From: Synechococcus sp. JA-2-3B'a(2-13)
Lineage (GTDB): Bacteria > Cyanobacteriota > Cyanobacteriia > Thermostichales > Thermostichaceae
Assembly: GCF_000013225.1 (NCBI RefSeq)
Contig: NC_007776.1
Location: 887,277-951,276 of the forward strand
DNA: 64,000 bases
Direction: 5' to 3'
The position numbers and the translations under genes are program-made. A model generated the notes under the pieces. It searched no databases, was not told where the DNA came from, and saw only the letters and a program-made list of their open reading frames with translations. Of the stretch, positions 24,365 to 52,908 are shown in pieces (the first letter of the stretch is position 1; each line of letters begins with the position of its first letter).

Positions 24365-25162
24365 ATGAATATTCTCATCAGCAACGACGATGGCATCCAG
24401 GCGGCAGGGGTGCGGTGTTTGGCGGCAGCGCTGGCCCAGCTGGGGGGGCACCAGGTAACGGTGGTCTGTCCGGATCGGGAGCGCTCGGCCACCGGCCACG
24501 CCCTGACGTTGCACAAGCCGCTGCGGGTGGATCCGGTGCGGGAGGGATTTCCTCCAGAAGTGCAGGCCTGGGCCTGTTCGGGCACCCCTTCCGACTGTGT
24601 CAAGTTAGGTCTGGACGGGCTATTGGATCGTCCTCCCGATTGGGTGATTTCCGGCATCAATCAGGGAGCCAATCTGGGCACGGATGTGCTCTACTCCGGC
24701 ACCGTCTCGGCGGCAATGGAAGGGCTATTGGAAGGGATCCCTAGCCTGGCAGTAAGCTTGGCCAGTTTTACCCATCAGGATTTTCAACCAGCGGCCCAGG
24801 TGGTGCTGAAGCTACTGGAGAAACTGAGCCTGAAACCCCTGGGGGAGCCGATGCTGTTGAACATCAACGTGCCCCCCCTAGCGCTGGCTGAAATACGCGG
24901 CATGGTCTTGGCCCGCCTGGCCTGGCGCAAGTACACAGATCTCTATGAGAAACGGGTGGATCCGCGCGGCAAGGCCTACTACTGGCTAGCTGGAGAGGTG
25001 GTGGAAGAGGAGGTGGATCCCTGTTCGGACGTGCGGGCGGTTGCTGAGGGCTATGTGTCGATTACGCCCCTGCAGCCAGATCTAACGGCTTATGCTGCCT
25101 TCGATAGCTTGCAGCAGTGGGGGCTCTCGGCTTTTGGCTCTGGATTGGAGGGAGCTCTGTAG
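24365..25162 (+). CDS. surE: 5'-nucleotidase SurE
   Basis: SurE dephosphorylates 5'- and 3'-nucleoside monophosphates and short polyphosphate, and is linked to stress survival. The 265-residue form starts [11 protein letters not shown] (metal-binding DD). It then has [41 protein letters not shown] and the later family segment YYWLAGEV. The ATG at 24365 is the family-like start; an upstream ATG at 24335 has no conserved extension. It is the last host-like gene before the imported-looking helicase operon. Confidence 0.95.
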
Positions 25163-25331
25163 GGATTGGCGCAGTTCAGAGTCAGAGAATAGAAAGGCTA
25201 TTAGGCCCTGGAATAGAAAGAAATCGCCTCTGCCAACGTGTTTAGCCCGTAGAGAGAGCGTCGGCAGTGTTGGACTACTGAGTCGCGCTGCCCTCTTCCA
25301 CCGCAGGCTAAAGAAACTGAGCGAAATAAAG

Positions 25332-28300
25332 TCAGGCAGCACCAGGACGCTTAGAGCGGGTAGTTTTTGTTGACTTTGCCAAGACATCCCCTGGTCGTCG
25401 CAACGTCAAAAAAGGATTGATTGCCTGAATGTGGGCCTGGGGATAGGCCTGACGGACTTGCTCAACAGTTTGTTGCCAGATGGGATGCTCATCAGTCCAA
25501 ATAGGATGGCGCACAATCCGCACTTCCCGCCCCCGGTTTCCCGTCCACACCGGCAGGAGAAAATCCTGAGACACTTGCTGGAAGCCTAGGTTTTCCAGCA
25601 GTGGCGGCAGTACCTGCTCCACCAAGCGCCGCCAGGGATTTTCCTGCTCTTCCCCCCAAGGGCTCTGCAAATCGACCGGTGCCCTAGCATCTCGCAGAAG
25701 GCGCGCCATATCCAAGGCTAGTCGCCAATCCAAGAGCCCGTGGTAGGCTAGGTTGGAGTAATCGCGCAAGCAGTTGTTGCAGGACGTGTCGCAGGTCTGC
25801 TGGTGCTGCAGCCAACGGAAGGCCAAACTGTTGGGTTGAGACAAGTCCTCTTGTTCCAGCAGCTTCGAGAAGACCTCCGGCTGAGCGAGGTAGAGGCAAT
25901 ACCCCGCGCCATTCTCCAGCTTGTCGAACAGAAAAGCCTGACCCACCACTCGGCCAGCCTCTTCCTTTGTCTGAAAGCTGGCTTGCAACTCGTCAGGATC
26001 GACATCCAAAAAGGTGCAGGCAGCCGCTCGCAACCAGAAGGCGAAGGAATACAAAGCTGCTCGCCCTTCCACAGTTGTTGAGTCAGCAAACACGCCAGGC
26101 GGCCAAGTTTGAAGGCTGACCAGCAGCACGTCAGTGCGTCGCTTAGACAGTAGGGCAATCCGATAGGTAGGGCCTATTCCTTCGAAACGTTTCCCCTGAA
26201 CTTCAGGACAAACATAAGCTCCTGGCCACTTCTTATCCGCTTGTAACAGGAACCCCCCCTCGCCGCCGCGATCATTGACGATTAAAACGTCATCGCTGCC
26301 TCCCCGCAGGTGAGCGTTGCCGGTCGTTGCGGTCGTCGCTTCCGCCTTAAGTCCGTCCGCGCCCAAGGTTGGCCGACTGACGCGGGGTTGCCACTCAAAT
26401 TGACCATCAAAATCCCGCGGCTGCAAGTTGGTGAAAAAGCCCCTGGGTTCCCGCGCATCAATGCAGCGGAGGGTGGTTTGCTGGCATACCGGACAGGCTT
26501 GCTTTGCCGGCTTGTGGGTAGCTGGGGGAGGAGAGCAAAGCGGCTGCTGTGGCTGGTAGTCCTCTATCATGGCTTGACAGTTGCAGCACAGACCTAGCCA
26601 GCGGTTAGGTTGGTCAAGAGCCGGCACCAGGCCAGGCCGCGATCGCACGTCCCCTTTGTGAGGCACCAACTCCACCAGTCCACAGGCGGTGTGCACCGCC
26701 CGATCTTTAACGATTTCTGAGCCGGGGGCAAATTGTGCGATTGCTGTATCCAAGTCGCGATCGATGGTGCCTTGGCTAGCCGACCAGCGGGTATAGAGCA
26801 GGCGCACCCGCGTGGGAAAGCCAAACATGGGCAAGATGCCAGCATTGGCCAGGCGTTCGCTGAGTTGGGATTGGCTGTAGGCATTGGAAGTGGCAATCTC
26901 GCTAATCTTATTGACCAAATCGTTGCAGATGTAGTGATGCAAGGCTTGTCGATCGTCAGCCGAGAGATGAGTTTGCTGGCAGAGTTGGGTGATCACGGTT
27001 TGGATTTCTTGGTCGTGGCTAGCAATCCATTGGCGAACCAACGGCTCCACCTCCTGCCACTTTTCGGCTAGACCAAATTCGCCGTGGACGCTGGTCACGT
27101 CTTCAAGATGGACTGCAGCGGATTGATCGTGTTGCGAGACTTCCTGAAAAGCTTGTCGCAAAACTTCTTTGGCGACGACGCGCCGAGCAATGGTGAGGCT
27201 GCGCAGGTCAATGTAGGGCGGGGGTGGCGGATCGCCGGTAATGGCCTCAGGGCGCTGAAAGTAAAAATCGTCATGGCTGCGACCCCGGCAAAACGTAACT
27301 GCCAAGGAGACCCCGGCACCGCGCCGACCAGCCCGTCCCACCCGCTGCTGGTAGTTGAACCGTCGGGGCGGCATGTTTGCCATCATCACTGCCAGCAGGC
27401 CGCCGATGTCTACGCCAGCCTCCATAGTGGTAGTCACGCTTAACAAATCAATGCCCTGAGCCAGCGGTATTTCTCCCTCTAGGAACACTTCCTGGAACCA
27501 GCGCTGCCGTTTGAGGCGATCCTCCTTGTCGGTTTGCCCTGTCAATTCGGCAGCATTCATCCGAAACGGTTCGTTTTCAGGGTCGGAGAGGTAGGCGTAG
27601 TAGTCCAAGTCGCGCGGCAAGCTGCTCGGCTGCAGTCGGATGGCCTGCGGGTCAGAGCGTTTGCTGGTGTTGCGACCGCCACTGCACTCTGGGCACCATC
27701 CCCCCGCAGTGTGCAAGTAAAAGGCCCCGCATTGAGGACAGCGGTAGCCTTGAAGACCTTCGCGAGAGACGGGCACAAGGTAGAGGCGATCTGGATCCAA
27801 AACCAATCCGTTCTCGCTACGGGTACCGATTTTGTTCAACTCCCGCTCGATCTGGGATTTTAAGTCTGGCTTGCCCTGTTCCTCTAATTTTCTCAAGTAT
27901 CGCTCCACGTACTGGGGTAATTCCCGCCTAGTACCCGGTCTGCAGAATTTGGAGTATCGATGCCGCTTGCGAATTCCCAATTGGCGGATAACCGCGCTGG
28001 CAACGTCTTGCAGTTCCGGAGGAACTTGAGCTGTAACATAGCCCTGTCCAAAAGACTCGATGTTTCTGACCGCATGGGCAAACAGCGTAAACATCATTTC
28101 ATCAGCTAAATAGGCATCGAGTTCATCGAGGTGTCTGTTTTGCTCTGGTGTTCGGGCAGCAATTCGTGTTACTGGTTGACTTTGCCAGTTGTAGAGCTCA
28201 GTCCAGGGATGCCGATCCTTATTGACGGAATAGTAAAGGGCGCTAAAGGACATCCCGCCAGGGCACAGTCCCAAATGTAAGAGCAGGTCTGCCAGGGTGC

Positions 28301-30968
28301 GCCGCAAGGCAAGGAGAGGAACTTTCTCGCCGTAAGACTTGAGCATCTCGAGCCACAGTTCACGAACTTGCTCGTTGGCAGGTCGCCGGTTTTGAGTCCA
28401 AAGCAGAGCTTCTGTAGCAATGTCACCTTGCCGATTAAGAAAGCGATCCCGTGCTGCCCAATCCTCCGCCATCCCCTCAACGTCTTGTAGCAACCGGGGA
28501 TATTCTCGCAACCGTTGCTGTCGTTCCTCTGGACTGGGCAACTCACAGCGCAGAAAGGCCCGCAGGTCTTGCCTATACTCCTCTGCTGATCGCACTAGCA
28601 GCAAGCGCACCATATCGCGATAGTGATCCATTTCCATACCGGCGGCTAACTTGGCTGCGTCCTGGCGGCTATCGGAAAAAACCACCAGCTTGCGGGATTG
28701 CGGTGTTGGCATTTCCCGCAACAAAGCTCCGGCAATCACCTGACAGGCTTTTTGGAATCCAGTGCGGTGCACGCGCAAAGGAGTGGGATAGGCCTCACGG
28801 AGAGCGCGATCGGTATCGCAGCGAGGGCAGCGGCTCGGCAAGGCGGGCTGATTCCCATCCCCCTCTTTCACTTGGTACACCCAGCCGGGAACCTCGCCTT
28901 CTCTAGGGGGGCTTTTATCTTGTCGGAGTTCACCAGTAGCGGGGTTGAGCTTGGCTTCAACCCACCCCCGCTTCGTCTTGCCAGCAGTCCACTCCAAATA
29001 TTGCGGCTGGGTCGCCCAAGGTTCCGGGTCGTGGGGCAGGGGCCAAAAAACGCGATAGTTCCCAGACCTCTGCGTAAGGTTCACCAAATCAGGAATGCCT
29101 TCCAAGTCAGGTTGATCGGGAGTGAGGATAAGGGACTCGCCGGATTGGTATGCATAGCCCCCCAGGAATACCTCCCCGCAAACTTCGCAGACGATCAAGT
29201 CCAGGACACGCGCCCCGCAGTCGCAACTGAGACGGTGTTGGCTGTGCAAAGCGCCAATGGGTGAAGGCGGCTGGTTGTTCTCCGGAGAGCGTTGCGCAAC
29301 GCTGCAGTGAGGGTTGCTGCACGCCCAGAGACCTTGCAGGTTGTGAAAGAAAAGGTGACCGCGCACGGGCTGGGGCGATCGCCCGTCTTCTCGCTGAGCT
29401 ACCGCCGTCGCCATCAACAATCCTCGCAAGGCCTCGGAGACCAGACCGCCTTGGGGCACGGCCGCCCCCGGGAACAGTTGCTGGTCAACTTTTTGGATGG
29501 GGGTGGCGCGCACGCTGCCACTAGCTTGCCGACAGGCCTCCCGCAAGGCATCGCCAACCTTGAGTTCTTCGAGGCACTCCCCCAAAGCCTGCTCCAGTGG
29601 TTTTGAGCTGGGATCGCCCCCCAGCTCTTGCACCAGCTTGGTCAGAGCTTCTTCGGGGATAGGGAGAGGTCGCAGGGGCTGGAGGGGATCCGCCTGCACA
29701 TCTCTGGCAAATTGAGCAAAAGCAACTTGATACTGACGCACTCGCGCTGGGGCTTCGGGATCCGGAGCAACTTGTTCTCCAGCGATCACCGCAAAGTTAT
29801 CGCGCCCAAAAAACTCCCGGAGAAACCGGCGGCCCGCCTCGCCCTCTTCCAAGCTGGCGCTGGTCGCCAAAATTTGTAGCTGTTCTGAGTTGACTGTTAG
29901 CCCCAAGCGGTACAGCAGCAAGCGCAGCAAATAAGCTACTTCTGACCCTGGTGTCCCGCGATAGGTGTGCAACTCATCCACAATCAGCAAGAATTTATTA
30001 CCTCGATCCGCTTGCAACCACGCTTTCGTTTGCTCGAACATCCCAGCCTCAATTTGCCGCATCAGCATAATGTTGAGCATGGAATAGTTGGTAATCAGGA
30101 TATCTGGGGGATGTTCTTGCATGTCCCAGCGTGAGCGCATTTCTCCCCCATCTAAGCGAGGGAAATAAAATACTAAATCCGAATCTTTATCCGAATTCTT
30201 GTTCCGAACAGCAACTCTTCCCTGCTGCTCCTGAAGATCTCTCAATAGCTTGGCCAATTCTTTGACCTTTTCAGGGGTCTGACGACCGGGGAGGGGTGTC
30301 TGTCCCGTATAGCGACCGAAGGTGATGCGATTGCCGCCGCGCTCGCGATCGAGCCAGGCATGGGTTTCCGGACTGTCCAACACCTTGCGCAACCGTCGCA
30401 ATTGATCCTCCACCAGAGCATTCAAAGGATAGAGAATCAAGGCCCGTATCGCCGCCGGTCGTTGTTGCCCTTGGCGCTGTGGTACCCACTTTGGATTGTC
30501 TTCCTGCTGCCACCAGAACGTATCGCCACTCTGAGGGGACATGGGATCCCAGGTACGGGATTCCCGGGCAAGGTGGGCTAGGATTGGCAACAAGAAACAC
30601 TCGGTTTTGCCAGAACCAGTTCCCGTTGTTACTACAATATCCTTCTGGTTAACGATGGCTGCCTTCAAACTTTGCCATTGGTGCTCATACAGCGGAAAGT
30701 TTGGAAATAAAGACTGGCCTAGATGTACCAAATCTTCATAACCAGCGGGTAAAGCTTTCGCTGCTTCCTCAAGGGTTTTGCCAGAAGAAGGGTAGAGTGG
30801 TGTAGGCTCCAATAGGGGAGGAGTACTAAGCAGAGCATTCTCAGGTCTGTACTGCAAGTGGCGATCCCGCTCGGCGCTAAGAGCAGGGTAACGTAAGGGA
30901 AAAGCACTTCTAATGTAAAGCTGGTAGATTCGATCTAACCGCTGATAGATACCGACGAGGTCGTACAT
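25332..30968 (-). CDS. Giant DEAD-type helicase with zinc clusters and DUF1998-like end (ORF-C)
   Basis: A 1,878-residue SF2 helicase. Motif I is TGTGSGKTE (Lys121), motif II DELH (331-334), motif III LATSAS (about 367), motif V TTTMEAGVDIG and motif VI QRVGRAGR (about 1,206). Between and after them lie Cys pairs of zinc type: CEVCGE, CPRCDTD, CPQCGAFY with CPEC, CCNCQ with CPVCQQ. The end has CDTSCNNCLRDYSN near 1,724, the DUF1998 signature, plus a 100-residue extra tail. Size and order recall DruE of Druantia and, less closely, DrmA of DISARM. No DUF4338, methylase or PLD gene is nearby. It is last in a three-gene operon and poor in GGATCC. A role in phage or plasmid defence is inferred. 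Confidence 0.85.
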   Translation of the reverse strand: MYDLVGIYQRLDRIYQLYIRSAFPLRYPALSAERDRHLQYRPENALLSTPPLLEPTPLYPSSGKTLEEAAKALPAGYEDLVHLGQSLFPNFPLYEHQWQSLKAAIVNQKDIVVTTGTGSGKTECFLLPILAHLARESRTWDPMSPQSGDTFWWQQEDNPKWVPQRQGQQRPAAIRALILYPLNALVEDQLRRLRKVLDSPETHAWLDRERGGNRITFGRYTGQTPLPGRQTPEKVKELAKLLRDLQEQQGRVAVRNKNSDKDSDLVFYFPRLDGGEMRSRWDMQEHPPDILITNYSMLNIMLMRQIEAGMFEQTKAWLQADRGNKFLLIVDELHTYRGTPGSEVAYLLRLLLYRLGLTVNSEQLQILATSASLEEGEAGRRFLREFFGRDNFAVIAGEQVAPDPEAPARVRQYQVAFAQFARDVQADPLQPLRPLPIPEEALTKLVQELGGDPSSKPLEQALGECLEELKVGDALREACRQASGSVRATPIQKVDQQLFPGAAVPQGGLVSEALRGLLMATAVAQREDGRSPQPVRGHLFFHNLQGLWACSNPHCSVAQRSPENNQPPSPIGALHSQHRLSCDCGARVLDLIVCEVCGEVFLGGYAYQSGESLILTPDQPDLEGIPDLVNLTQRSGNYRVFWPLPHDPEPWATQPQYLEWTAGKTKRGWVEAKLNPATGELRQDKSPPREGEVPGWVYQVKEGDGNQPALPSRCPRCDTDRALREAYPTPLRVHRTGFQKACQVIAGALLREMPTPQSRKLVVFSDSRQDAAKLAAGMEMDHYRDMVRLLLVRSAEEYRQDLRAFLRCELPSPEERQQRLREYPRLLQDVEGMAEDWAARDRFLNRQGDIATEALLWTQNRRPANEQVRELWLEMLKSYGEKVPLLALRRTLADLLLHLGLCPGGMSFSALYYSVNKDRHPWTELYNWQSQPVTRIAARTPEQNRHLDELDAYLADEMMFTLFAHAVRNIESFGQGYVTAQVPPELQDVASAVIRQLGIRKRHRYSKFCRPGTRRELPQYVERYLRKLEEQGKPDLKSQIERELNKIGTRSENGLVLDPDRLYLVPVSREGLQGYRCPQCGAFYLHTAGGWCPECSGGRNTSKRSDPQAIRLQPSSLPRDLDYYAYLSDPENEPFRMNAAELTGQTDKEDRLKRQRWFQEVFLEGEIPLAQGIDLLSVTTTMEAGVDIGGLLAVMMANMPPRRFNYQQRVGRAGRRGAGVSLAVTFCRGRSHDDFYFQRPEAITGDPPPPPYIDLRSLTIARRVVAKEVLRQAFQEVSQHDQSAAVHLEDVTSVHGEFGLAEKWQEVEPLVRQWIASHDQEIQTVITQLCQQTHLSADDRQALHHYICNDLVNKISEIATSNAYSQSQLSERLANAGILPMFGFPTRVRLLYTRWSASQGTIDRDLDTAIAQFAPGSEIVKDRAVHTACGLVELVPHKGDVRSRPGLVPALDQPNRWLGLCCNCQAMIEDYQPQQPLCSPPPATHKPAKQACPVCQQTTLRCIDAREPRGFFTNLQPRDFDGQFEWQPRVSRPTLGADGLKAEATTATTGNAHLRGGSDDVLIVNDRGGEGGFLLQADKKWPGAYVCPEVQGKRFEGIGPTYRIALLSKRRTDVLLVSLQTWPPGVFADSTTVEGRAALYSFAFWLRAAACTFLDVDPDELQASFQTKEEAGRVVGQAFLFDKLENGAGYCLYLAQPEVFSKLLEQEDLSQPNSLAFRWLQHQQTCDTSCNNCLRDYSNLAYHGLLDWRLALDMARLLRDARAPVDLQSPWGEEQENPWRRLVEQVLPPLLENLGFQQVSQDFLLPVWTGNRGREVRIVRHPIWTDEHPIWQQTVEQVRQAYPQAHIQAINPFLTLRRPGDVLAKSTKTTRSKRPGAA

Positions 30969-31000
30969 GGTTTTTCCTTTGCCTTTGGCAAAAACTGTAA

Positions 31001-32326
31001 CTATTTCTCCAGATCAAAAAACGGCAGCTGTTCACCAATGACTTGCCACACAGTTGGTGCAATGTTCTGATAAATCAGTTCTTCTGTTGTGCGATTGTAG
31101 CGAGGCAGACAACCCGATTGCATGACCAAGTAGCGTTCGTAGGCTAGCGGCCAGCGCTGGCTGATAGGGATCGATAGTTCTTGGGCATTGGGGTCGTAAC
31201 TAACTGATAGGTTTTTGGGAGCAAGATGAGTCAAAGCCAAAAAACGTAAACTGTACCATTCGGCGCTGTACCAAGCGTTGTGCTGGCGGTCGTAGAATAG
31301 GGCATGCTGCTGTTGGGATCCCTCCTCGTACAGCTCGTAGAAACCCGTTTCCTCGGCGTCTGGCACATCTACGAAGCTGCTCCCATCGTAGCGCTTTAGT
31401 CGATAGCGGTGAAGTGGCACCCAATCGACGACCTTTAGCGTAGCTACCCAATCAGCCCAAGGAGGAGGGGCCTCGACCGGACGAATGGCTAGGGCAGGGT
31501 ATTTGGTCCGTAACTCGGCAATTGCATTGGCAGCATCAGCTTGCAGCTCAAGCTGCCAACAGGGTGGAGCATCCCTTCGAGGTTGAGGGATCTTCACAAG
31601 GCGACCAAACTGCTGCAAAGACTCTTGCAGGCTGGCGTTTCGCTGACCGTACAGCACGTAGCAATTTTTGCTCACTGGCTGCAGGGAAGGTGGCTGCATT
31701 TGCCAGTGTTGACCATCCTGAGCTGCCAGAAGATGCCCTAACAACTGCAGCCGACGCCACAACCGACGCGGTTGGACTAGATCTAGGTGACTGCATACGG
31801 CTTGAAAGGTTTCCCAAGAACCAGAACCGGCTGCCGATAACCACCAAAGCAGCTGTTCGCACGGCTGGGAGCGATCGCTTCCTGCCGCCTCTGCTATAGG
31901 TGTTTCCAAACCAAGTGGGTTGACTTTAGGTGGCCGCTTGACTTGGAAATACTCAATGGGTTGGGTATCCCGTTCCAACTCATAGGCGATACCCACCATG
32001 TGTCGAATATCTTCCCAGCAAAATCCTTCTCTTCGAATCCTAACTATACTGATACCTCTCACTGTTTTAATCAGTTGCTCAAGGGTGTTTTGTGTGGATG
32101 ACCAATCAGAGCGCGCATTTGTCTTAATACCCAAGTAGAAGTAATACTCTCCCCTACTTCTTTCCTTAATGCCCTTCTCAATACGAACATGAGACACAAC
32201 ATCGGCCAAGTTTTCTTGAGTAACCCGCTTTTGTAAGTAATTCAGCAACTTTTGGGGTTTGTATCTGGAGGTATGGGTGCGAAAGCCCCAGTAAGTTTGC
32301 TCTGACCGAGAAGATTTTTTCGACAT
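31001..32326 (-). CDS. Uncharacterised operon protein with possible winged helix (ORF-B)
   Basis: I do not recognise a family in this 441-residue soluble protein. It opens with a charged Ser/Lys segment and YWGFRTHTSRYKPQK. An alpha/beta region follows to about residue 125 (EYYFYLGIKTNAR, GISIVRIRREGFCW). Around residues 155-215, LLWWLSAAGSGSWETFQAVC followed by RRLWRRLQLLGHLLA could form a winged helix. The C-terminal third is Trp/Tyr-rich (WYSAEWYSLRFLALTHL). It starts 12 bp after ORF-A ends and ends 32 bp before the helicase start, so cotranscription is near certain. It contains a HIP1 octamer at 31,871. Likely a helicase partner or specificity protein, by inference. Confidence 0.75.
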   Translation of the reverse strand: MSKKSSRSEQTYWGFRTHTSRYKPQKLLNYLQKRVTQENLADVVSHVRIEKGIKERSRGEYYFYLGIKTNARSDWSSTQNTLEQLIKTVRGISIVRIRREGFCWEDIRHMVGIAYELERDTQPIEYFQVKRPPKVNPLGLETPIAEAAGSDRSQPCEQLLWWLSAAGSGSWETFQAVCSHLDLVQPRRLWRRLQLLGHLLAAQDGQHWQMQPPSLQPVSKNCYVLYGQRNASLQESLQQFGRLVKIPQPRRDAPPCWQLELQADAANAIAELRTKYPALAIRPVEAPPPWADWVATLKVVDWVPLHRYRLKRYDGSSFVDVPDAEETGFYELYEEGSQQQHALFYDRQHNAWYSAEWYSLRFLALTHLAPKNLSVSYDPNAQELSIPISQRWPLAYERYLVMQSGCLPRYNRTTEELIYQNIAPTVWQVIGEQLPFFDLEK

Positions 32327-32338
32327 AGAGTTATGCCT

Positions 32339-33919
32339 CTACTCTAGGGAAGCTAATGACAAATCACCCCAACTCAGGATCTTCAAAAAGCGTTCCTGGT
32401 GGGCAGTTCCGCCCCGTACTTGGATTTGGTAAGTACCGGGAGGTAAGTCTGCGGGCAAATCCCAAGGCTGGTTGGTAGAGCGATGGTCTTCTGGAAGATA
32501 TATGCTCCCGGTACGCACTTCAGTTAGAGTCACGGCTACCGTAGGCTGAAACCCGTACACAGTCACCTTTGGCAAGTGACCCTCGAGCCAACCTTGTCCT
32601 TGCGGTACCCGTAGCCCTCCACCCAAGGCAATGTGCAGACGATCGCGTGGTTGTAAGGCCTCTTTCAGCTCAGGATGTTGTAAAAACAAACCGTCCCATA
32701 CCGGCGCCAGCACCTGACATTCTTGGATTTCCCACCAGCCAGAGGTTACTTCAAAGGCAAGCTGGCGATCGCCCTCCCACTGCAGCAGCTTTTCTTCTCG
32801 TAGCTGCTGCAAGTCCAACCAGAGTGCTTCCCGAAACAGCACTGTGAAATGACTGCCCAATTTAGGTGCTCCCCAACTAGCCAGCGCACTAGACTCGGGG
32901 TTCTCAGGATCGGGCACCAAGACCCAAAAGTCTCGAGCTGGCAGCTGGAGTTCCCGCAAGTGGGCATGATCTCGAATCGGCCATGACTTCCCCGTTGTTA
33001 GATCGGCAGCAGAAAGCGGTGCGCCAACAGGGAAAAACCAACCAGAGCGCTCACAACGCAAGCTACCTAGGTTTTCTACGGTCACCTCGGCAACTGGCCA
33101 ACGACGCGGAACTTTGGGGTAAGGGTAGTACTCTGGATTCCCCCACCGATCTTCGGTGCGATACAGCCCTGCAATCAGGCACGTGGGGGGACGTCGGCTA
33201 AATTGTTCAGGTTTCGGGCATTGTGCGTCTAACCACTCCTGATGGACGGCTAGGATTTCGGCGCCCAGTACCTCGTGTCGCTGGCGATCGTCCAGCAGCT
33301 CTTCCAGATGGCGGTTCAGGTTTTTTTCGCTCGCCAAGTCCACCAGTAACTTAGTTTCGCTGCGGGCGGTAGTCCAGTTTTTCTCGTAAAACAGGCAACA
33401 GAGCTTTTGGATGTCCGCTTTCCGCAGCAGGGTTTGGGAAATGGGGTAATTCAAATACCGGCGCGGGCCTTCCCCTGGCTCGGCGGTGGCAATCCATCCC
33501 TTTACCTCTAGCCATTGGTTCCACTCCTGCCATAGGCCTTCTTCATCTCCAGCTTTCATCCCAGTGGGACGAGTGTCGCCGCCTACCCCCAATCGTTGAC
33601 AAAAATGGGTAAAGAAGTCCCTCTCATCCAGCTCCTCATCCCTCACCATGTCGTTGGCGGCGAGCACCATCAGCGCCAAGAAGGCAACTCCTGCTGGTTC
33701 GGGCAAGCTTTGGTTTTGCAGAGTTGATAGCTGGACTCGCTGGCCATCTACCACCTGGGCGCGCACGGCTTGGCAAAAGTCCTCAACTGGGCCTAAGCCT
33801 AGACTTGCTAAAACTTCTTCATCTACGCTGAGGTAAACTGGCGTACCGTGAGGAACTCCCAGCGTTGCCCATTGAACAATTGCTTGGTTCCAGCGGGCAT
33901 AGTTGTTGTGCAGCGCCAC
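32339..33919 (-). CDS. Uncharacterised first protein of helicase operon (ORF-A)
   Basis: A 526-residue soluble protein with no family I can name. The N-terminal half is helical (GVAFLALMVLAANDM, then DFFTHFCQRLGVGG and GLWQEWNQWLEVKGW). The middle holds Tyr/Pro-rich sequence (YYPYPKVPRRWP). The end looks like a beta-sandwich (DLPADLPPGTYQIQV). The start is GTG at 33919, with GAGG six bases upstream. It is first in the operon, 12 bp before ORF-B. It carries a HIP1 octamer at 32,765 and I find no GGATCC in it. It could be a sensor or scaffold for the helicase, which is inference from gene order. Confidence 0.75.
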   Translation of the reverse strand: MALHNNYARWNQAIVQWATLGVPHGTPVYLSVDEEVLASLGLGPVEDFCQAVRAQVVDGQRVQLSTLQNQSLPEPAGVAFLALMVLAANDMVRDEELDERDFFTHFCQRLGVGGDTRPTGMKAGDEEGLWQEWNQWLEVKGWIATAEPGEGPRRYLNYPISQTLLRKADIQKLCCLFYEKNWTTARSETKLLVDLASEKNLNRHLEELLDDRQRHEVLGAEILAVHQEWLDAQCPKPEQFSRRPPTCLIAGLYRTEDRWGNPEYYPYPKVPRRWPVAEVTVENLGSLRCERSGWFFPVGAPLSAADLTTGKSWPIRDHAHLRELQLPARDFWVLVPDPENPESSALASWGAPKLGSHFTVLFREALWLDLQQLREEKLLQWEGDRQLAFEVTSGWWEIQECQVLAPVWDGLFLQHPELKEALQPRDRLHIALGGGLRVPQGQGWLEGHLPKVTVYGFQPTVAVTLTEVRTGSIYLPEDHRSTNQPWDLPADLPPGTYQIQVRGGTAHQERFLKILSWGDLSLASLE

Positions 33920-34103
33920 AGTAACCTCGCCCTGGGTTCCTTCCTCAAGCCTAGGCAGGCGTTGAATGCCCAGTTTCCTATTTTTTGAATCCCTTTATGT
34001 TTGTTTTAGGTCAAATTGGCAGCAAAACAGAGTCGGCGCTGTAGAGGCTAGCTGCCTCGGAGAGGAAATGGTCGGGCGAGACCGTCGGGAAGCTTACCCC
34101 AGA

Positions 34104-34565
34104 TCAAGAGGAGAGGTTTGCCAGTGAGAGCAAGCGCTCCGCAACCTCTGCAGCCACAGGTATCACCGACAGGCGTGTGCCCCGCCGCACCACCTCCAGC
34201 TCCTCCGGGGTGAAGGTGGCCCGCAATTTGGCCAAAGGGATCACTCTTTCAAAAGCAGCCAAAAATTGCACCCGCACCGTGTACCACCGGGGATCTGCTG
34301 GAGTGGACTTGGGATCGTAGTAGGGGCTGGTCGGATCAAACTGGCTGGGATCCACCACGTGGGTTTCCAGGATCTCCATCAAACCGGCAATTCCGGGTGG
34401 CTCGGCATTGGAATGGTAGAAAAAGGCGCGATCCCCAGGCTGCATTGCCTTCAGATAGTTGCGGGCTTGGTAGTTGCGCACGCCATCCCAAAGGGTTTGG
34501 CCCTCCCGCTGCAAATCCCAGATGCTATAGATGCTGGGCTCAGATTTCATCAGCCAGTAGTTCAT
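34104..34565 (-). CDS. EVE domain protein
   Basis: A 153-residue stand-alone EVE (PUA-like) protein. The family start is exact: YWLMKSEPSIYSIWDL, then GVRNYQARNYLKAMQPGDRA, FYHSNAEPPGIAGLMEI and DPRWYTVRVQF. EVE domains form an aromatic cage that reads modified bases in DNA or RNA. The gene follows hisH by six bases, so it is probably in that operon and host-like. It sits just upstream of the imported helicase operon, but palindrome density places it on the host side. Confidence 0.9.
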   Translation of the reverse strand: MNYWLMKSEPSIYSIWDLQREGQTLWDGVRNYQARNYLKAMQPGDRAFFYHSNAEPPGIAGLMEILETHVVDPSQFDPTSPYYDPKSTPADPRWYTVRVQFLAAFERVIPLAKLRATFTPEELEVVRRGTRLSVIPVAAEVAERLLSLANLSS

Positions 34566-35296: not shown

Positions 35297-36514
35297 ATGG
35301 CTGTGGCAATTGCTTCGCACGATCCCACTCCGACCGGTACTGCTCCGCAACCCTGTCGCGACCAGGTTGATTGGCCTGAGGCGGCTTACCTGCACATCCC
35401 TTTTTGTCGGCAACGCTGCCACTACTGTGATTTTGCCACCGGCCTGGGCACCCGCAAGTTGATGGAAACCTACGTGCAGATGCTCTGCCGGGAGATCGGC
35501 GGCGCCTACCGCTACCGCCATCTGGCCGGGGATCCCAGACCGTTGACCAGCATTTTTTTCGGGGGTGGCACCCCTTCTCTGCTGACGGTGGAGCAACTGG
35601 GGCGGATCTTGACTCAATTGAGGGAGAGGATCCCGTTTCATCCCGACTGCGAGATTTCTCTGGAGGCCAACCCCGGCACCCTGACGCGGGAGCAGTTGGC
35701 GGGCTACCGGGAGCTGGGGGTCAACCGCATCAGCCTAGGGGTACAGGCATTTCAGCCAGAGCTGCTGGCCGCTTGTGGTCGCCTGCATGGAGTGGAGGAA
35801 GTTTACGAAGCCGTGGCCGACTTGCAGGCGGCGGGCTTTGAGAATTTCAACCTGGATTTGATCTTTGAGCTGCCCTACCAGACTTTGGAACACTGGCAGC
35901 AGTCTCTACGAGCTGTTCTTGAGATTAACCCCACCCATGTCTCCGTCTATGATCTGACGATTGAACCGGGAACCCGCTTTGGTCGGATGTACCGACCGGG
36001 AGCAGCACCTTTGCCCAGCGAGGAAACCACAGTTGCCATGTACCTAATGGCGCGGGAGCTGCTCACCGAAGCGGGCTACATCCACTACGAAATCTCCAAT
36101 TTTGCCCGCCCCGGCTACGCCTGTCGCCACAACCGAGTGTACTGGGAAAATCGCCCTTACTTTGGCTTTGGCATGGGATCCGTCGGCTACGAGGGGGGAC
36201 GGCGCATTCAGCAGCCCAAAACCCTTTACCACTACTTCGAGCAGGTGAAAGTCGGAGTCCACCCTCTCCCTCCTGAAGCATCCCCAGAGGAAGTTTGGAT
36301 GGATACTTTGATGTTGGGGTTGCGTTTACAGGAAGGTCTGGATTTGTGCCATTTACAGGAGCGTTTTGGCCACCCAAAGGTCGAGCAAGCTTTGGAGAGG
36401 CTGGATCCCTATTTTGAGAAGGGATGGGCCAGTTGTGAGGCAGGCCGGCTACGGCTGATTCCGCCCGATGGCTGGCTATTTTCCAATGAGATTCTCAGAG
36501 ACTTGCTGGCTTGA
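35297..36514 (+). CDS. hemW: Radical SAM protein HemW-like
   Basis: A 405-residue radical SAM enzyme of the coproporphyrinogen III oxidase-like group; HemW binds haem and acts as a haem chaperone rather than an oxidase. The cluster motif is CRQRCHYC (Cys37, 41, 44), preceded by AAYLHIPF. FFGGGTPSLL, NRISLGVQAF, NFNLDLIFELPYQT and ISNFARPGYACRHNRVYW follow. The fourth cysteine typical of HemN oxidase is replaced by Phe after the motif (CHYCDF), supporting HemW. It is divergent from hisH. Confidence 0.88.
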   Translation: MAVAIASHDPTPTGTAPQPCRDQVDWPEAAYLHIPFCRQRCHYCDFATGLGTRKLMETYVQMLCREIGGAYRYRHLAGDPRPLTSIFFGGGTPSLLTVEQLGRILTQLRERIPFHPDCEISLEANPGTLTREQLAGYRELGVNRISLGVQAFQPELLAACGRLHGVEEVYEAVADLQAAGFENFNLDLIFELPYQTLEHWQQSLRAVLEINPTHVSVYDLTIEPGTRFGRMYRPGAAPLPSEETTVAMYLMARELLTEAGYIHYEISNFARPGYACRHNRVYWENRPYFGFGMGSVGYEGGRRIQQPKTLYHYFEQVKVGVHPLPPEASPEEVWMDTLMLGLRLQEGLDLCHLQERFGHPKVEQALERLDPYFEKGWASCEAGRLRLIPPDGWLFSNEILRDLLA

Positions 36515-48662: not shown

Positions 48663-49163
48663 ATGAGCCAAAAGCTTCTGTTTGTCTGTCTGGGTAACAT
48701 CTGTCGCTCTCCCACTGCTGAGGGCATCACCAATCACCTTTTGCGCAGCAGCGGCCATAAGGAAGCAATTATCTGCGACTCAGCAGGTACGGCAGCCTAT
48801 CACATCGGCAGCCCCCCAGATAGGCGCATGCAACAAGCAGCCCGATGCTATGGCCTAGAGCTACAAGGCAAGGCCCGCCAGATTCGACCTGCCGACCTGC
48901 GCGAGTTTGACCTGATCCTGGCTATGGATCGACAAAATTACCGCGACATTCTCAGCTTGGATCCCCAGGGAAAATATGCCGAGAAAGTGCGCCTGATGTG
49001 CAGCTATTGCCGCTCTCATTCTGACGAAGAAGTTCCGGATCCCTACTACGGGGGTGAGGCTGGATTCCATTACGTGATCGAGCTGCTCTGGGATGCCTGT
49101 AGCGGCTTGCTGGAATCCCTGGTTCCCGGGATCCAATGCCCACCGTTGCCCCCCCGTGCTTGA
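48663..49163 (+). CDS. Low-molecular-weight protein-tyrosine phosphatase
   Basis: A 166-residue cysteine-based phosphatase. The signature loop is VCLGNICRSPTAEG (C-x5-R). ILAMDRQNY and VPDPYYGGEAGF follow, supplying the general-acid Asp. The N-terminal start at the ATG at 48663 is preceded by GGGGAGG. Targets are unknown; in cyanobacteria such enzymes have been linked to exopolysaccharide or stress control, which I cannot judge here. It is the last intact core gene before the integron remnant. Confidence 0.93.
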   Translation: MSQKLLFVCLGNICRSPTAEGITNHLLRSSGHKEAIICDSAGTAAYHIGSPPDRRMQQAARCYGLELQGKARQIRPADLREFDLILAMDRQNYRDILSLDPQGKYAEKVRLMCSYCRSHSDEEVPDPYYGGEAGFHYVIELLWDACSGLLESLVPGIQCPPLPPRA

Positions 49164-49350
49164 GAGCTTGTGTGTTTATTTAAAGTTAATTCAAATGGCG
49201 ATGAGACGGTAGCCAGTACAATAGCTCCGTTTGCGATAGTCATTCCGAATAAGTCTGGGACATTTGCCCTGCCTTCGATCTCTAACCGGCCAACACAAAC
49301 ATACCCCTTATCTGTCTCCCAAAGCAGACTAGGGGAACCTGGGATCCCCA
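49163..49350 (-). other. Orphan coding fragment downstream of the hepT remnant
   Basis: On the minus strand, a stretch of about 60 residues reads SLLWETDKGYVCVGRLEIEG and NVPDLFGMTIANGAIVLATV in one frame, a plausible protein pattern without a start. It is out of frame with the hepT stub above it. I do not recognise the family. Confidence 0.35.
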
Positions 49351-49464
49351 AGTTGCTTTCCTGCAGTCTGAAACAACCATATATCCTGGCCCAGAGGGAT
49401 CCTCATCTAACTTAATTGCCTCTATTTCCGATCTTACTCTGTTCTGCCAATCTCTAGAAGGCAC
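49282..49464 (-). pseudogene. hepT remnant joined to foreign sequence
   Basis: The frame begins GTG at 49464 and reads MPSRDWQNRVRSEIEAIK, the start of a HepT-type HEPN toxin, the usual partner of MntA. Homology stops after 18 residues, exactly at AAGTTAGATG. Unrelated sequence (LDEDPSGPGYMVVSDCRK) then follows to a stop. The catalytic HEPN Rx4-6H motif is absent. It overlaps the mntA end by 11 bases, as intact pairs do. Confidence 0.65.
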
Positions 49465-49744
49465 GAACCACCTCCCGGAGAACGGATTCTTGCAGATAGG
49501 GCTTGAGGGAGTCAGGCGTACCTAGATCAACCGGACTCTCTAAAATTTCCTCTAGATATCGTTTCAAGCGTGCAAAAGTGAACAATCCAACTGGACGGTC
49601 AAACTCTACTAGCAGATCGATATCACTGTCTGTTTGCGCTTCATCCCTTGCTACTGAACCAAAGAGCATTAGAGACTTTACGCCAAAGTCCTTCAGAGTG
49701 TTCTGGTGATTTGCCAGTAATGTAAGGACTTCCTGTTTTTGCAT
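49454..49744 (-). CDS. mntA: MntA-type nucleotidyltransferase antitoxin
   Basis: A 96-residue minimal nucleotidyltransferase. The motif GSVARDEAQTDSDIDLLVEF holds the G-S and paired Asp residues (DSDID) of the catalytic site. MntA adds AMP to the HepT toxin to silence it. Here the gene is intact but its toxin is truncated. It lies in the cassette region on the same strand as the other cassette genes. Confidence 0.85.
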   Translation of the reverse strand: MQKQEVLTLLANHQNTLKDFGVKSLMLFGSVARDEAQTDSDIDLLVEFDRPVGLFTFARLKRYLEEILESPVDLGTPDSLKPYLQESVLREVVRAF

Positions 49745-49762
49745 TACCCAACCTGCAATGAA

Positions 49763-49844
49763 AAGAAAAGTCCATTAGGAATTATAGCTCACCTATTTCC
49801 TCTAAGAAAAGTCCATTAGGAATTATAGCTCACCTATTTCCTCT
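49763..49844. repeat. 41-bp perfect tandem duplication upstream of mntA
   Basis: Two adjacent exact 41-bp copies (49763-49803 and 49804-49844), AT-rich, in the leader of mntA. It is too short to be a CRISPR array. Confidence 0.95.
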
Positions 49845-49866
49845 CAATTACGACTCAAACAAAGAT

Positions 49867-49971
49867 TCATAACGCTTTGCAGGTCGCAGGCACAGTTGAG
49901 CCGAGGCACACCTTGCAGAGGACAGGGATCCCTGGGTTCCCGCAATGAGGGCATTTGAGCTTGCTCATCAT
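49867..49971 (-). pseudogene. Truncated zinc-ribbon protein
   Basis: Reads MMSKLKCPHCGNPGIPVLCK then VCLGSTVPATCKAL and stop, 34 residues. The first two Cys pairs of a zinc ribbon are present (CPHC, CKVC). Similar proteins often continue with a third Cys pair and membrane helices, which are missing. The truncation falls at GCGTTATGA, which matches the right end of an attC site. I recognise the family only by pattern. Confidence 0.5.
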
Positions 49972-49988
49972 CTTGTCTCTGGGTACAT

Positions 49989-50183
49989 CTAACGGCACGC
50001 ACATCTTGCCTTGCCATTAACAGCCAGTTCAAGAAACTTGTCGTCTTTGGGATCACGACACGTCGCCACGCGCTCTACAATCTCCACCAAGACGCCATCT
50101 CTAACAAAAGTGCTCAAGAACTCCATCCGTTCTTCCTCGGTTATATACCTTTCAAATCCTTTGCGCCGCAGGACATCGCTCAA
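49989..50183 (-). pseudogene. Fragment of PIN-family toxin
   Basis: About 64 residues of a PIN-domain toxin: DVLRRKGFERYITEEERMEF and CRDPKDDKFLELAVNGKA. The N-terminal catalytic strand (DTN) and the last part (TGDxDL) are gone. It begins right at the stop of the secreted-protein gene and ends at GCCGTTAGATG, an attC-like right end. Confidence 0.65.
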
Positions 50184-50554
50184 TTCTTCTTCTTTACACG
50201 TGGGGTGGGAACACAGTGTGACTTGAGGGGGGAGAAATCAACCCCGTCATCCCTCACCGTGAACCTTAGCCTCCCTGCTTGCAGTGGCACCCTGCATGTC
50301 TTATCAAGGAACCCATCCCAAATCGGATTCTCGATTTCGGTCCCGTACCTCATTACGCATCTCCCCCCCGCCTTACCCGCCACTTCGATGGTCGTAGAGC
50401 CGAAGGCGAAGAAGACCAACCGCCGCTCAGGAGTACACGCGCCGAAATCGATCTCAATATCAGCGCGCCCTCCCTGAGCGTGAGTCGGTACAGATGTCAG
50501 TGGCAAGACGAGCAGCGCCGAGGCCATAACCCTGAGAGCTATACATCTCTTCAT
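50180..50554 (-). CDS. Small secreted hypothetical protein (integron cassette gene)
   Basis: A 124-residue exported protein of unknown function. A clear signal peptide (CIALRVMASALLVLPLTSVP, cut after THA) is followed by a beta-rich domain with four cysteines. Sequences include ADIEIDFGACTPERRLVFFA and the end LKSHCVPTPRVKKKN. The start lies about 37 bp from the attC crossover point, as expected for a cassette gene. An ATG at 50581 is an alternative start. Confidence 0.6.
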   Translation of the reverse strand: MKRCIALRVMASALLVLPLTSVPTHAQGGRADIEIDFGACTPERRLVFFAFGSTTIEVAGKAGGRCVMRYGTEIENPIWDGFLDKTCRVPLQAGRLRFTVRDDGVDFSPLKSHCVPTPRVKKKN

Positions 50555-50590
50555 CGGCAGACTTCTCATTATGAACCGCATCGATCAGCC

Positions 50591-50679
50591 ATCTAACGCC
50601 TTAACTCACCCGCCACCCCAAATCCGGGATCCCAGCCAATAACCTATCCCAAGGTCGGGTGCAGTGACTTGTTATGTTG
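50591..50679 (-). other. attC-like integron recombination site
   Basis: Read on the minus strand it begins with CATAACAAGTCACTGCACC and ends with GAGTTAAGGCGTTAGAT. The right end GTTAGAT fits the GTTRRRY core, and the left end is the complementary AAC core. The inner arms are imperfectly complementary (GGGTGGCGGGTGAGTTAAGG against the left arm), giving a hairpin of about 89 bp, a normal attC size. It lies between the DUF4288 cassette and the secreted-protein cassette. Confidence 0.65.
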
Positions 50680-50777
50680 AGTGACTCTCCCTCCCTAAAG
50701 GTATCAGGATCCTCAGTGACCAGCCCCCAGGGATCCCTACCCAATCACTGACTTTCTACCAAGGCTGGCAACATAAT
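50671..50777. repeat. 107-bp element with 9-bp terminal inverted repeats, copy 1
   Basis: Bounded by GTTATGTTG and GGCAACATAAT. It is the same length as a second copy at 51947-52053 with near-identical ends and a different interior. It adjoins the attC-like site. Confidence 0.55.
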
Positions 50778-50911
50778 GACAATGATCTGGGATGAGGCTC
50801 GGGCTATATCGAGATTTCTGAGCTTGGTTGAGGGATCCATTTTTTTTGCTTATTGTATTGAGTACATTGAATTGAATTGAGACCATTAGAATTGAGCATA
50901 GGAAAGCCAAA

Positions 50912-51253
50912 CTATAGTTCTTCACCTGACAAAAGTGGTTCAAACTCTTTATATGCTTGATAATTACGAAAATGTCGAGCGTAAATTTCTGCTCCATCAA
51001 GATCGACATCATACAAAACTTGATTCACATCAACAATATGCTTTAACTTCCACGTTATTGAGTCACCTACTTCATTATTAAATGTATATGTATGAGCGTT
51101 TGCATATTCCTGGGCTTTCTGATTTGCTTCTTCTAGAGAACTAGCCTTTATTAGCATAAAACTCCCTTCGAAAAGAGTTTTATAGTCTGGCGATGATGAT
51201 GAAGATTCATAAACTAACACAGCGATATAAACGTTTATGTCTTGACGATCCAT
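50912..51253 (-). CDS. DUF4288 family protein, possible immunity protein
   Basis: A 113-residue soluble acidic protein. The DUF4288 pattern is visible: VYIAVLVYESSSSSPDYKTL, FEGSFMLIKASSLEEANQKA, DSITWKLKHIVDV and GAEIYARHFRNY. The family's function is unknown to me. It begins 13 bp after the end of a toxin-like lipoprotein pseudogene, in the toxin-immunity order, so I infer that it neutralised that toxin. It is AT-rich against the host average. Confidence 0.65.
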   Translation of the reverse strand: MDRQDINVYIAVLVYESSSSSPDYKTLFEGSFMLIKASSLEEANQKAQEYANAHTYTFNNEVGDSITWKLKHIVDVNQVLYDVDLDGAEIYARHFRNYQAYKEFEPLLSGEEL

Positions 51254-51266
51254 TCTGATTCTCCAA

Positions 51267-51861
51267 CTATTTCAAAAATCCGCGATCATTTAACAGCTTC
51301 CACGCTTTCTTGTAGTTTGCGGCATTTCCCGCCTTTATGTTGCCAAGTGTTTCGTTCAAAAGCTCTCCTGGAAATTCTTGTCTGATTGATGCTTTTCGGC
51401 ATCTGCTAATGAAGCTATCAGCAATGTCACCCAAATTGTTATTAGCAACACAGTCGGCAGACGGACAACTGGCGGTGTAGAAAGCTGGATCCGCTGAGGA
51501 TAGGGATCGCTCTACGGATGGGGCACAGGGATCCGGGGCAGGCAGATAACAGCTATCTTCTACCTTTAGGCAGATAACAGCTATCTTCTACCTTATTGCA
51601 GGCACATCCCGGCGGTTGATGGCACTTCAAGCTGACGTTGATGCAGCTATTGCCACAGGCTTTACCCGTCACACATCGACGACAACAGGTACTGCAATCG
51701 ACGGGATCACCTGGCTGTGACCGTTCTACCCTAATGATGGACAGTGATGGATCCGAGTTAATAGTCGAAGCAGTCCGAGATCCACTGCCACAACCCACAA
51801 ATAGGAGCAGCGATAACAGTATTAGAAAAAACTGTGCGAGCTTAAATGGTTGAGCTTTCAT
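51267..51861 (-). pseudogene. Cys-rich lipoprotein with toxin-like C terminus, broken by a 28-bp duplication
   Basis: The start MKAQPFKLAQFFLILLSLLL with lipobox VGC shows a lipoprotein signal. A Cys-rich module follows (CSTCCRRCVTGKACGNSC, then CHQPPGCACN). The frame stops at 51553 after a 28-bp duplication. With one copy removed, translation continues without a stop to 51267, through NETLGNIKAGNAANYKKAWK and LLNDRGFLK. That ending resembles the C-terminal domains of polymorphic toxins. A DUF4288 gene follows after 13 bp. The intact protein would have been a surface-anchored, deliverable toxin; this is inferred. Confidence 0.6.
51540..51595. repeat. 28-bp tandem duplication
   Basis: Two adjacent copies with a 28-bp period (51540-51567 and 51568-51595) around AGGCAGATAACAGCTATC. 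As 28 is not a multiple of three, it shifts the reading frame of the lipoprotein gene. Confidence 0.9.
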
Positions 51862-51933
51862 ACAATGAGATCCATCAGTTTGCTTCACTCGTGCTAATTG
51901 AGAGGACAAGGTTCAGAGTATAGCACTGGGTCA

Positions 51934-51955
51934 GGTGCAGCGACTTGTTATGTTG
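51934..51955 (-). other. Partial attC-like left arm
   Basis: Matches the left arm of the attC-like site at 50658-50679 at all but one of 22 positions (minus strand ATAACAAGTCGCTGCACC). No right half follows, so it is a half site just upstream of the lipoprotein pseudogene. Confidence 0.55.
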
Positions 51956-52053
51956 TGTGGATTTGTGTACCGATCGCCTCGGCTACCCACCGACCCCAGC
52001 GCCCCTTCATCAACAAACCTGACTAGGCACAACTCTGGCGCTGGCAACATAAC
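51947..52053. repeat. 107-bp element with 9-bp terminal inverted repeats, copy 2
   Basis: Bounded by GTTATGTTG and CAACATAAC, the second copy of the element at 50671-50777. The ends agree and the interior differs. Confidence 0.55.
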
Positions 52054-52380
52054 ATGTGTTTCTGCAGCTAGATGACTGATAATCACCTAAGAAGCAGACT
52101 TTTCCATCGCCTAGTGTAATGCTGCCCTAATTTGTCTGTATAGTCAACATTTTGAGCGATAATTACCTCCAAAGGGTTTTTATCTGGCTGAATGAGCATT
52201 AACACACCCATACCTAGACTCAGAAAGCTCCTGGAGCAAGTCAGCTAGAAATCGCAGGATCCGCACACTGTACTCATAAAGTCAGTGTCGGGAGGAATGT
52301 GCAACTTTATTTGCTCTATGTTATGATAATAGTGCGGACACCAGAAACGGTTATTTAAGGCACTGGTAACGGTCGATTGG
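52054..52380. other. Integron leader region, no confident gene
   Basis: AT-rich sequence where the attI site and the 5' part of the integrase gene would be expected. A 42-codon minus-strand frame (52083-52211) reads MLIQPDKNPLEVIIAQNVDY and may be a gene fragment, but I cannot support it. Confidence 0.3.
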
Positions 52381-52488
52381 GGCTGCCGTAAACCAGCCTA
52401 GAGGTTCGGGCCTGTTTTGTTCTCTGGTAGAGCAGAGCAGGCCCAGGGCTACTAAAAGCCTACTCTGTATCGCTAAAGCGGTACGGAG
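52381..52488 (+). ncRNA. Strongly structured segment, possible RNA of unknown type
   Basis: Four hairpins in a row: GGCTG/CAGCC (52381-52398); GGGCCTG/CAGGCCC with an inner CTCTG/CAGAG (52408-52444); GGCT/AGCC (52447-52460); and an 11-bp stem with a TAAA loop (52463-52488). The density of pairing is higher than in other spacers here. I cannot match it to 6S RNA, tmRNA, SRP RNA or a known riboswitch. The strand is uncertain because stems read the same on both. Confidence 0.4.
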
Positions 52489-52496
52489 CCGGGTAG

Positions 52497-52667
52497 TTTA
52501 CTTGCCACACCTTCCGCCATAGTTTTGCCACTCATCTCCTGCAAAACGGCTACGACATCCGCACCGTCCAAGAATTGTTGGGCCACAAAGATGTCAAAAC
52601 CACCATGATTTACACCCATGTGCTGAATAAAGGCGGGCGCGGGGTGAGAAGTCCATTGGATCCTTAG
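52497..52667 (+). pseudogene. intI: C-terminal stub of an integron integrase
   Basis: Fifty-six codons without a start: [39 protein letters not shown] and [15 protein letters not shown], then stop. These are the last active-site residues of a tyrosine recombinase (HxxR, LLGH, catalytic Tyr). The tail [14 protein letters not shown] is that of IntI/XerD-like integron integrases. The N-terminal 80 per cent is missing. It points away from the minus-strand cassette genes, as intI does in integrons. Confidence 0.85.
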
Positions 52668-52815
52668 AAGGGGACGCTCTCTGGGGAAGGGATCCTCTTC
52701 CCCTTTACAGTATCTCAGCGATCATTGCGAATTATTACGACCTTGCCGTCATACCCCCGGCAGGGATCCGTTTCTCTGGTAGAACGGGAAACAGACAATA
52801 GGGGATCCTGCCTAT

Positions 52816-52862
52816 CGCGTCAGCGGGACGGAGTCCTTTCGCGTTAGCAGGACAGAATCCTT
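52816..52862 (+). repeat. Two-unit copy of the dispersed GACGGAGTCC repeat
   Basis: CGCGTCAGCGGGACGGAGTC followed by a second, diverged unit CGCGTTAGCAGGACAGAATC, in the chlH leader. The copy at 58196-58240 has the same two-unit structure. Confidence 0.7.
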
Positions 52863-52908
52863 TCCCCGGTTTACCCAATTTCTGCATTGCACAACGGAGA
52901 GCGACCGC

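What the first reader, a model, noticed from the sequence alone, without database searches (positions are those of the whole stretch)
25332..33919. Three-gene operon with a giant zinc-cluster helicase: candidate undescribed defence system
Three tightly packed minus-strand genes (526, 441 and 1,878 residues; gaps of 12 and 32 bp) form one transcription unit. The last is an SF2 helicase with intact motifs I, II, III, V and VI, several Cys-pair clusters and a DUF1998-type C terminus. The first two match no family I know. Helicases of this size and end are seen in Druantia (DruE) and related islands. But no DruA-type DUF4338 protein, methylase, PLD nuclease or other listed partner is present. The unit is isolated between surE and the hisH operon and looks imported. 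A self-contained helicase plus two novel partners would be a new defence type or a far relative of Druantia.
Basis: partly seen in the sequence, partly recalled or inferred. Interest (0 to 1): 0.88.

Follow-up and report, generated by a model that had tools for sequence, protein, structure and literature searches.

The report
Stripped-down Druantia type IV defence operon
The three genes are a compact form of a known but untested bacterial anti-phage system (Druantia type IV: DruF, DruL and the giant helicase DruE); what is new is that they belong to a sub-lineage with rearranged partner proteins whose relatives often carry a base-exchange enzyme where related systems carry a DNA methylase.

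Summary
In detail: three packed minus-strand genes (526, 441 and 1,878 aa; gaps 12 and 32 bp) lie between surE and an EVE-domain gene. The claim of a new defence type does not hold. ORF-C is a full-length DruE (PADLOC DruE4, 1636 bits). ORF-A is DruF (profile-profile 100%, E 9e-52, residues 5-516). ORF-B is DruL (100%, E 1e-42, residues 155-437). DruE+DruF+DruL without DruM or DruG is the published Druantia type IV. The trio is recurrent: 31 of 32 related loci with enough upstream sequence carry DruF-DruL-DruE on one strand. Two things I found in no paper: (1) this clade splits its domains differently (DruF lacks the ~170-residue C-terminal region; DruL gains a ~150-residue ferredoxin-like N-terminal region); (2) 12 of 29 clade loci carry a DpdA/TGT-like base-exchange enzyme, a ~280-aa protein and a large ATPase nearby (0 of 31 other loci), while the others carry cytosine methylase (19 of 31, against 1 of 29). 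The window's genome has neither, and no DruK nuclease. Likely mechanism: DruE loads on 3'-tailed phage DNA intermediates, gated by DruF/DruL. Function is inferred, not shown.

The parts
32339..33919 (-). druF (ORF-A), 526 aa, first gene of the operon; short-form DruF
   Evidence: PADLOC DruF2 E 1e-18, DruF4 6e-12; hhalign to canonical DruF family 100%, E 9e-52, res 5-516 = 4-522 of 690; AlphaFold pLDDT 90
33224..33919 (-). DruF residues 1-232: all-helical N-terminal region
   Evidence: AlphaFold2 secondary structure
32375..33181 (-). DruF residues 247-515: tandem beta-sandwich (Ig-like) domains, no catalytic-looking conserved residues
   Evidence: AlphaFold2 model and Foldseek matches to Ig-like repeat proteins (weak); invariant residues P75 L81 A88 W130 W395 G435 P450
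31001..32326 (-). druL (ORF-B), 441 aa, second gene; long-form DruL
   Evidence: PADLOC DruL4 E 2e-12 over 157-430, also C-terminus of long DruF2; hhalign 100%, E 1e-42
31991..32326 (-). DruL residues 1-112: extra ferredoxin-like / RRM-like N-terminal region found in this clade only
   Evidence: AlphaFold2, weak Foldseek matches to ACT/ferredoxin-like folds, weak TruA match; absent from canonical DruL
31016..31864 (-). DruL residues 155-437: canonical DruL core, beginning with a winged-helix-like segment
   Evidence: hhalign, AlphaFold2, weak profile match to a transcriptional regulator
25332..30968 (-). druE (ORF-C), 1,878 aa, YprA-like SF2 helicase, third gene
   Evidence: PADLOC DruE4 1636 bits full length; PDB hits to large helicases 9wae (4e-176) and 9tu7 (1e-46)
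30600..30629 (-). DruE motif I (Walker A), TTGTGSGKTE, res 114-123
   Evidence: sequence; conserved across relatives
29967..29978 (-). DruE motif II, DELH, res 331-334
   Evidence: sequence; conserved across relatives
27321..27350 (-). DruE motif VI, QQRVGRAGRR, res 1207-1216
   Evidence: sequence; conserved across relatives
25767..26036 (-). DruE MrfA-type Zn-binding (MZB/DUF1998) region, res 1645-1734
   Evidence: Pfam PF09369 E 9e-4, below cut-off; C1726/C1730/C1733 conserved
25140..34155 (.). approximate extent of the stretch absent from relative G001 (empty site between surE and the EVE gene)
   Evidence: blastn alignment of G001 breaks at 25139 and resumes at 34156; sequence of the junction

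Best explanation
A Druantia type IV anti-phage operon of a distinct sub-lineage (clade 1). DruE is the motor: an SF2 YprA-family helicase that probably loads on 3'-single-stranded or forked phage DNA intermediates and unwinds or strips them. DruF (helical region plus tandem beta-sandwiches) and DruL (ferredoxin-like region, winged-helix-like core) show no catalytic signature; they probably form the recognition and gating complex that aims DruE at phage DNA and holds it off the host chromosome. I found no evident active nuclease or methylase in the trio, so interference is probably by helicase action together with host nucleases. Shown: homology, operon, domain layout, patchy presence, empty site. 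Inferred: anti-phage function, substrate, role of each partner.
For: PADLOC DruE4/DruF/DruL hits. Profile-profile identity of ORF-A with DruF and ORF-B with DruL. Published definition of type IV = DruE+DruF+DruL without DruM and DruG (PMC8565338). No C5 methylase, no DruK homologue (with controls that rang) and no TGT cassette (likewise) in the genome. 31 of 32 related loci with room upstream carry DruF-DruL-DruE in order on one strand. Patchy presence and empty site. Relatives in a defence island next to a Piwi/Argonaute-like gene and a Cas3-like helicase (by reading) and on a conjugative plasmid. DruE of type III unwinds 3'-overhang and forked DNA and binds it through an electropositive channel (PMC13192584). 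[quoted passage not shown] the DruE C-terminus here shows conserved HP and RRP but no conserved acidic residues.
Against: No member of type IV has a phage-protection assay in the papers found. The single-sequence matches of ORF-A to DruF are weak and N-terminal only; full-length homology rests on profile comparison. DruG was not sought genome-wide. The G004 copy has an in-frame stop in druL and a frameshift in druE, so the system may be dispensable there, or that draft assembly is wrong.
Confidence: 0.85

Rival explanations
1. A new, unrelated three-gene defence system.
For: Pfam and NCBIfam find no credible family for ORF-A or ORF-B and public annotation of the plasmid-borne relative calls both hypothetical.
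Against: ORF-A and ORF-B are homologous over nearly their whole comparable length to DruF and DruL, next to a full-length DruE.
Confidence: 0.04
2. A decaying remnant of a larger Druantia system that once had a modification module (DruM methylase or TGT cassette) and a nuclease (DruK), now inactive or nearly so.
For: Relatives often carry a methylase, DruK or the TGT cassette; the window's genome has none of these; the G004 copy is broken.
Against: All three window ORFs are intact with conserved motifs; many clade-1 relatives (17 of 29 with at least 8 kb of flank) also lack the TGT cassette nearby, so the bare trio is common.
Confidence: 0.12
3. A DNA-repair or plasmid-exclusion complex rather than an anti-phage system; YprA/MrfA relatives act in DNA repair.
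For: DruE is of the YprA/MrfA superfamily.
Against: It scores far better against DruE than against any other helicase family; patchy, mobile, island- and plasmid-borne distribution.
Confidence: 0.08

Closest known systems
Druantia type IV (DruE-DruF-DruL; PADLOC, PMC8565338)
   Same: Same three proteins by homology, no DruM or DruG found; DruE4 model is the best match over the full length.
   Different: DruF 526 aa instead of about 690 (lacks the C-terminal ~170 residues); DruL 441 aa instead of about 310 (extra ferredoxin-like N-terminal region); partner models score weakly. PADLOC's DruK nuclease, found in sister-clade loci, is absent.
Druantia type II (DruM, DruF, DruG, DruE)
   Same: DruE (1579 bits) and DruF homologous; long DruF2 models contain the DruL region at their C-terminus.
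   Different: No DruM (no C5 methylase in the whole genome); no DruG among flanking genes.
Druantia type III (DruH-DruE)
   Same: Giant YprA-type helicase with zinc clusters.
   Different: DruE3 score much lower (418 bits); no PLD domain found by Pfam; partners are not DruH.
Dpd and other YprA-helicase systems (DISARM, ARMADA, BRIGADE)
   Same: YprA-family helicase; some clade-1 relatives of this trio carry a DpdA/TGT-like enzyme.
   Different: Helicase is DruE, not DpdJ or DrmA; no DpdA-type gene found in the window's genome.

Membership tests
Druantia type IV | DruE helicase | tested here: met
   PDLC00051 DruE4, 1636 bits, residues 2-1869
Druantia type IV | DruF | tested here: met
   PADLOC E 1e-18; hhalign 100%, E 9e-52, 475 aligned columns
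Druantia type IV | DruL | tested here: met
   PADLOC E 2e-12; hhalign 100%, E 1e-42, 272 aligned columns
Druantia type IV | lacks DruM | tested here: met
   PF00145 finds nothing in the whole genome; rings in 10 of 14 control genomes
Druantia type IV | lacks DruG | tested here: inconclusive
   no DruG among ten flanking genes; not sought genome-wide
Druantia type IV | protects against phage | not testable with these tools
   no assay; no published assay of type IV found
Druantia type II | DruM cytosine methylase in the operon | tested here: not met
Druantia type III | DruH partner and PLD nuclease on DruE | tested here: not met
   no DruH match, no PLD match
Dpd | DpdA base-exchange enzyme encoded with the helicase | tested here: not met
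   only short GNAT-type matches to the TGT-like protein in the genome; positive controls rang at 1e-154 to 1e-242
DISARM | DrmA helicase with separate DrmB (DUF1998) and methylase | tested here: not met
   DrmA only 33 bits against 1636 for DruE4; no flanking DrmB or methylase match

The most novel reading that the evidence does not exclude
The window's trio belongs to a Druantia lineage in which self-marking moved from cytosine methylation (DruM) to TGT/DpdA-like base exchange: a GNAT-TGT fusion with a ~280-aa protein and a large ATPase. The long-form DruL reads that mark or its absence. The window holds the stripped form, which must discriminate by DNA structure alone.
Probability: 0.25. Interest if true: 0.72.

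Novelty: new variant of a known kind. Interest (0 to 1): 0.45.

Why it matters
PADLOC's authors found type IV to be the most widespread of their new subtypes (11 phyla), yet its partner proteins have no known fold or role. Predicted folds, a clade with a different domain split, and an alternation between a methylase and a base-exchange cassette give direct hypotheses for how Druantia tells self from phage. Partner models match this clade weakly, so routine annotation probably under-calls it: public annotation of the plasmid-borne copy labels DruF and DruL hypothetical.

Tried and rejected
(1) That DruL's extra N-terminal region is the missing DruF C-terminal region (a shifted gene split): no detectable homology. 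(2) That the adjacent EVE-domain gene is part of the system: it sits next to hisH in G001 and G003, which lack the trio. (3) Glycoside-hydrolase-like and TruA-like Pfam hits: below cut-off; the TruA hit is explained by a ferredoxin-like fold. (4) PDB sequence and profile searches for ORF-A/B: nothing credible. (5) Fold search of DruF: only weak Ig-like matches with low TM-scores over the whole chain. (6) The ATPase profile (A6) and the TGT profile (A7) found nothing in 390 cyanobacteria, but neither run held a positive control. (8) Relatives in viral contigs exist (14 loci, two of them close) but were not examined further.

Full report
Observation. The helicase motifs are intact and conserved among relatives. 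The locus lies between surE and a small EVE-domain gene that precedes hisH. Genome size (3,046,682 bp) and the relative G001 (2,932,766 bp) suggest hot-spring Synechococcus JA-2-3B'a(2-13) and JA-3-3Ab; this is from memory, not a test.

What the genes are. Pfam and NCBIfam identify only the helicase. PADLOC identifies all three: ORF-C as DruE4 (1636 bits over the full length; DruE2 1579), ORF-A as DruF (E 1e-18, N-terminal part) and ORF-B as DruL4 (E 2e-12, residues 157-430; it also matches the C-terminus of long DruF2 models). Because the partner hits were weak, I collected 80 related loci, extracted the partners, and compared profiles. ORF-A's family aligns to canonical DruF with 100% probability (E 9e-52, 5-516 to 4-522 of 690), and ORF-B's to canonical DruL (E 1e-42, 155-437 to 2-292 of 295). 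PADLOC independently names the canonical forms: L099's partners hit DruF4 at 1454 bits and DruL4 at 307 bits. DruE+DruF+DruL lacking DruM and DruG is the published definition of Druantia type IV (PMC8565338).

Absent parts. No C5 methylase was found in the genome. DruK, the PD-(D/E)XK protein found downstream of DruE in sister loci, is absent, with control genomes ringing. Ten flanking genes hold no defence partner; the single weak hit is to a radical-SAM-type gene, 35297-36514 (gene type by reading).

Recurrence and mobility. Of 32 clade-1 loci with at least 3.4 kb upstream of DruE, 29 score as DruF-DruL-DruE on one strand. Two more (L025, L056) were missed only because an over-long DruE start was chosen; the last (L041) has DruL elsewhere (read). 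So a lone helicase is not the rule. G001 shows an empty site. G004 has the trio at the same site, at 78-83% DNA identity, with a stop in druL and a frameshift in druE. G005 has a different DruE fragment at 57% identity on another contig. In G023 the trio follows a 743-aa Piwi/Argonaute-like gene and a Cas3-like helicase, identified by reading the translations, not by a domain search. A complete copy sits on the conjugative plasmid pOSC7112.01. Among 390 cyanobacterial genomes, 17 carry a DruE hit at E <= 1e-100, not all of them of this clade.

Two clades. The DruE tree puts the window in a 40-row clade with SH-aLRT 100 (quick method, so support is approximate). Clade 1 has DruF about 530-580 aa and DruL about 430-460 aa as a rule (some N-terminally extended); canonical members have about 660-720 and 295-340. 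The extra pieces are not detectably homologous. AlphaFold models: DruF, pLDDT 90, is helical then tandem beta-sandwiches; DruL, pLDDT 85, is a ferredoxin-like region, a low-confidence linker, then a core starting with a winged-helix-like segment. Foldseek hits are weak for both.

A modification switch. In loci with at least 8 kb total flank, a C5 methylase family occurs in 1 of 29 clade-1 loci and 19 of 31 others (Fisher 1e-6). A cassette of a TGT-like protein, a ~280-aa protein and a large ATPase occurs in 12 of 29 and 0 of 31 (Fisher 4e-5). Related sequences are not independent, so these p-values are too small; on the tree the cassette label needs 9 changes, where shuffles reached as few in 15 of 500. 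The split into clades and the counts were made after looking at the loci, so they are a pattern found, not a prediction tested. The TGT-like protein matches DpdA models weakly (NCBIfam E 8e-9, below cut-off; PADLOC 5e-6), is often fused to GNAT, and keeps DSGG/DCGA-type and FDSSGW/LDSTTW motifs. In Chloroflexota, the TGT domain occurred in 2 of 350 genomes; both hold clade-1-like DruE (one was a source of the query), and in G598 both lie on one contig within about 6 kb. On pOSC7112.01 the cassette lies downstream of the trio, facing it (identified by gene order, size and the GNAT annotation). No paper in the library mentions both Druantia and DpdA. The window's genome lacks the cassette.

Mechanism. 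Type III DruE unwinds 3'-overhang and forked DNA and is described as the shared core of Druantia, with subtype-specific partners as the activation layer (PMC13192584). I extend this by homology: DruE as motor, DruF/DruL as sensor and gate. DruE's C-terminus shows no conserved acidic residues; the type I/II Vsr-like domain is reported as inactivated (PMC12458937). I therefore expect helicase-driven interference aided by host nucleases. This step is inference.

Verdict. Known kind (Druantia IV), a variant clade of it. Interest comes from the domain shift and the methylase/base-exchange alternation in relatives, not from the window's trio alone.

Noticed in passing
L035:735-6913, L056:798 onwards, L034:19234-25508, L046:309-5964, L131:10843-16999: Cassette of GNAT-fused DpdA/TGT-like protein, ~280-aa protein and ~1,250-aa ATPase beside clade-1 Druantia IV, in some loci co-directional and directly before druF. 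No description of this pairing found.
   Followed up: partly
L041:6143-8116, L048:324-2315, L051:4937-6928, L052:4954-6936: A ~660-aa NERD/UvrD-like helicase-nuclease candidate directly upstream of druF in four clade-1 loci (weak Pfam/PADLOC matches).
   Followed up: no
L073:5812-8637, L046:6281-8665, L054:1-2685, L109:377-2614: DruF with N-terminal extensions of about 180-380 residues of unknown family.
   Followed up: no
L024:2571-3752, L028:6044-7108: A pentapeptide-repeat gene occupies the surE/EVE junction in relatives (G003, G004), so this junction has varied content in the genus.
   Followed up: partly
L025:6648-8879: A 743-aa Piwi/Argonaute-like protein directly upstream of the druF-druL-druE operon in G023 (named by reading the translation, no domain search made).
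   Followed up: no
window 49000-53000: GC dips to 0.45-0.51 with few long ORFs between a phosphatase-like gene and a magnesium-chelatase-like gene; content not identified.
   Followed up: no
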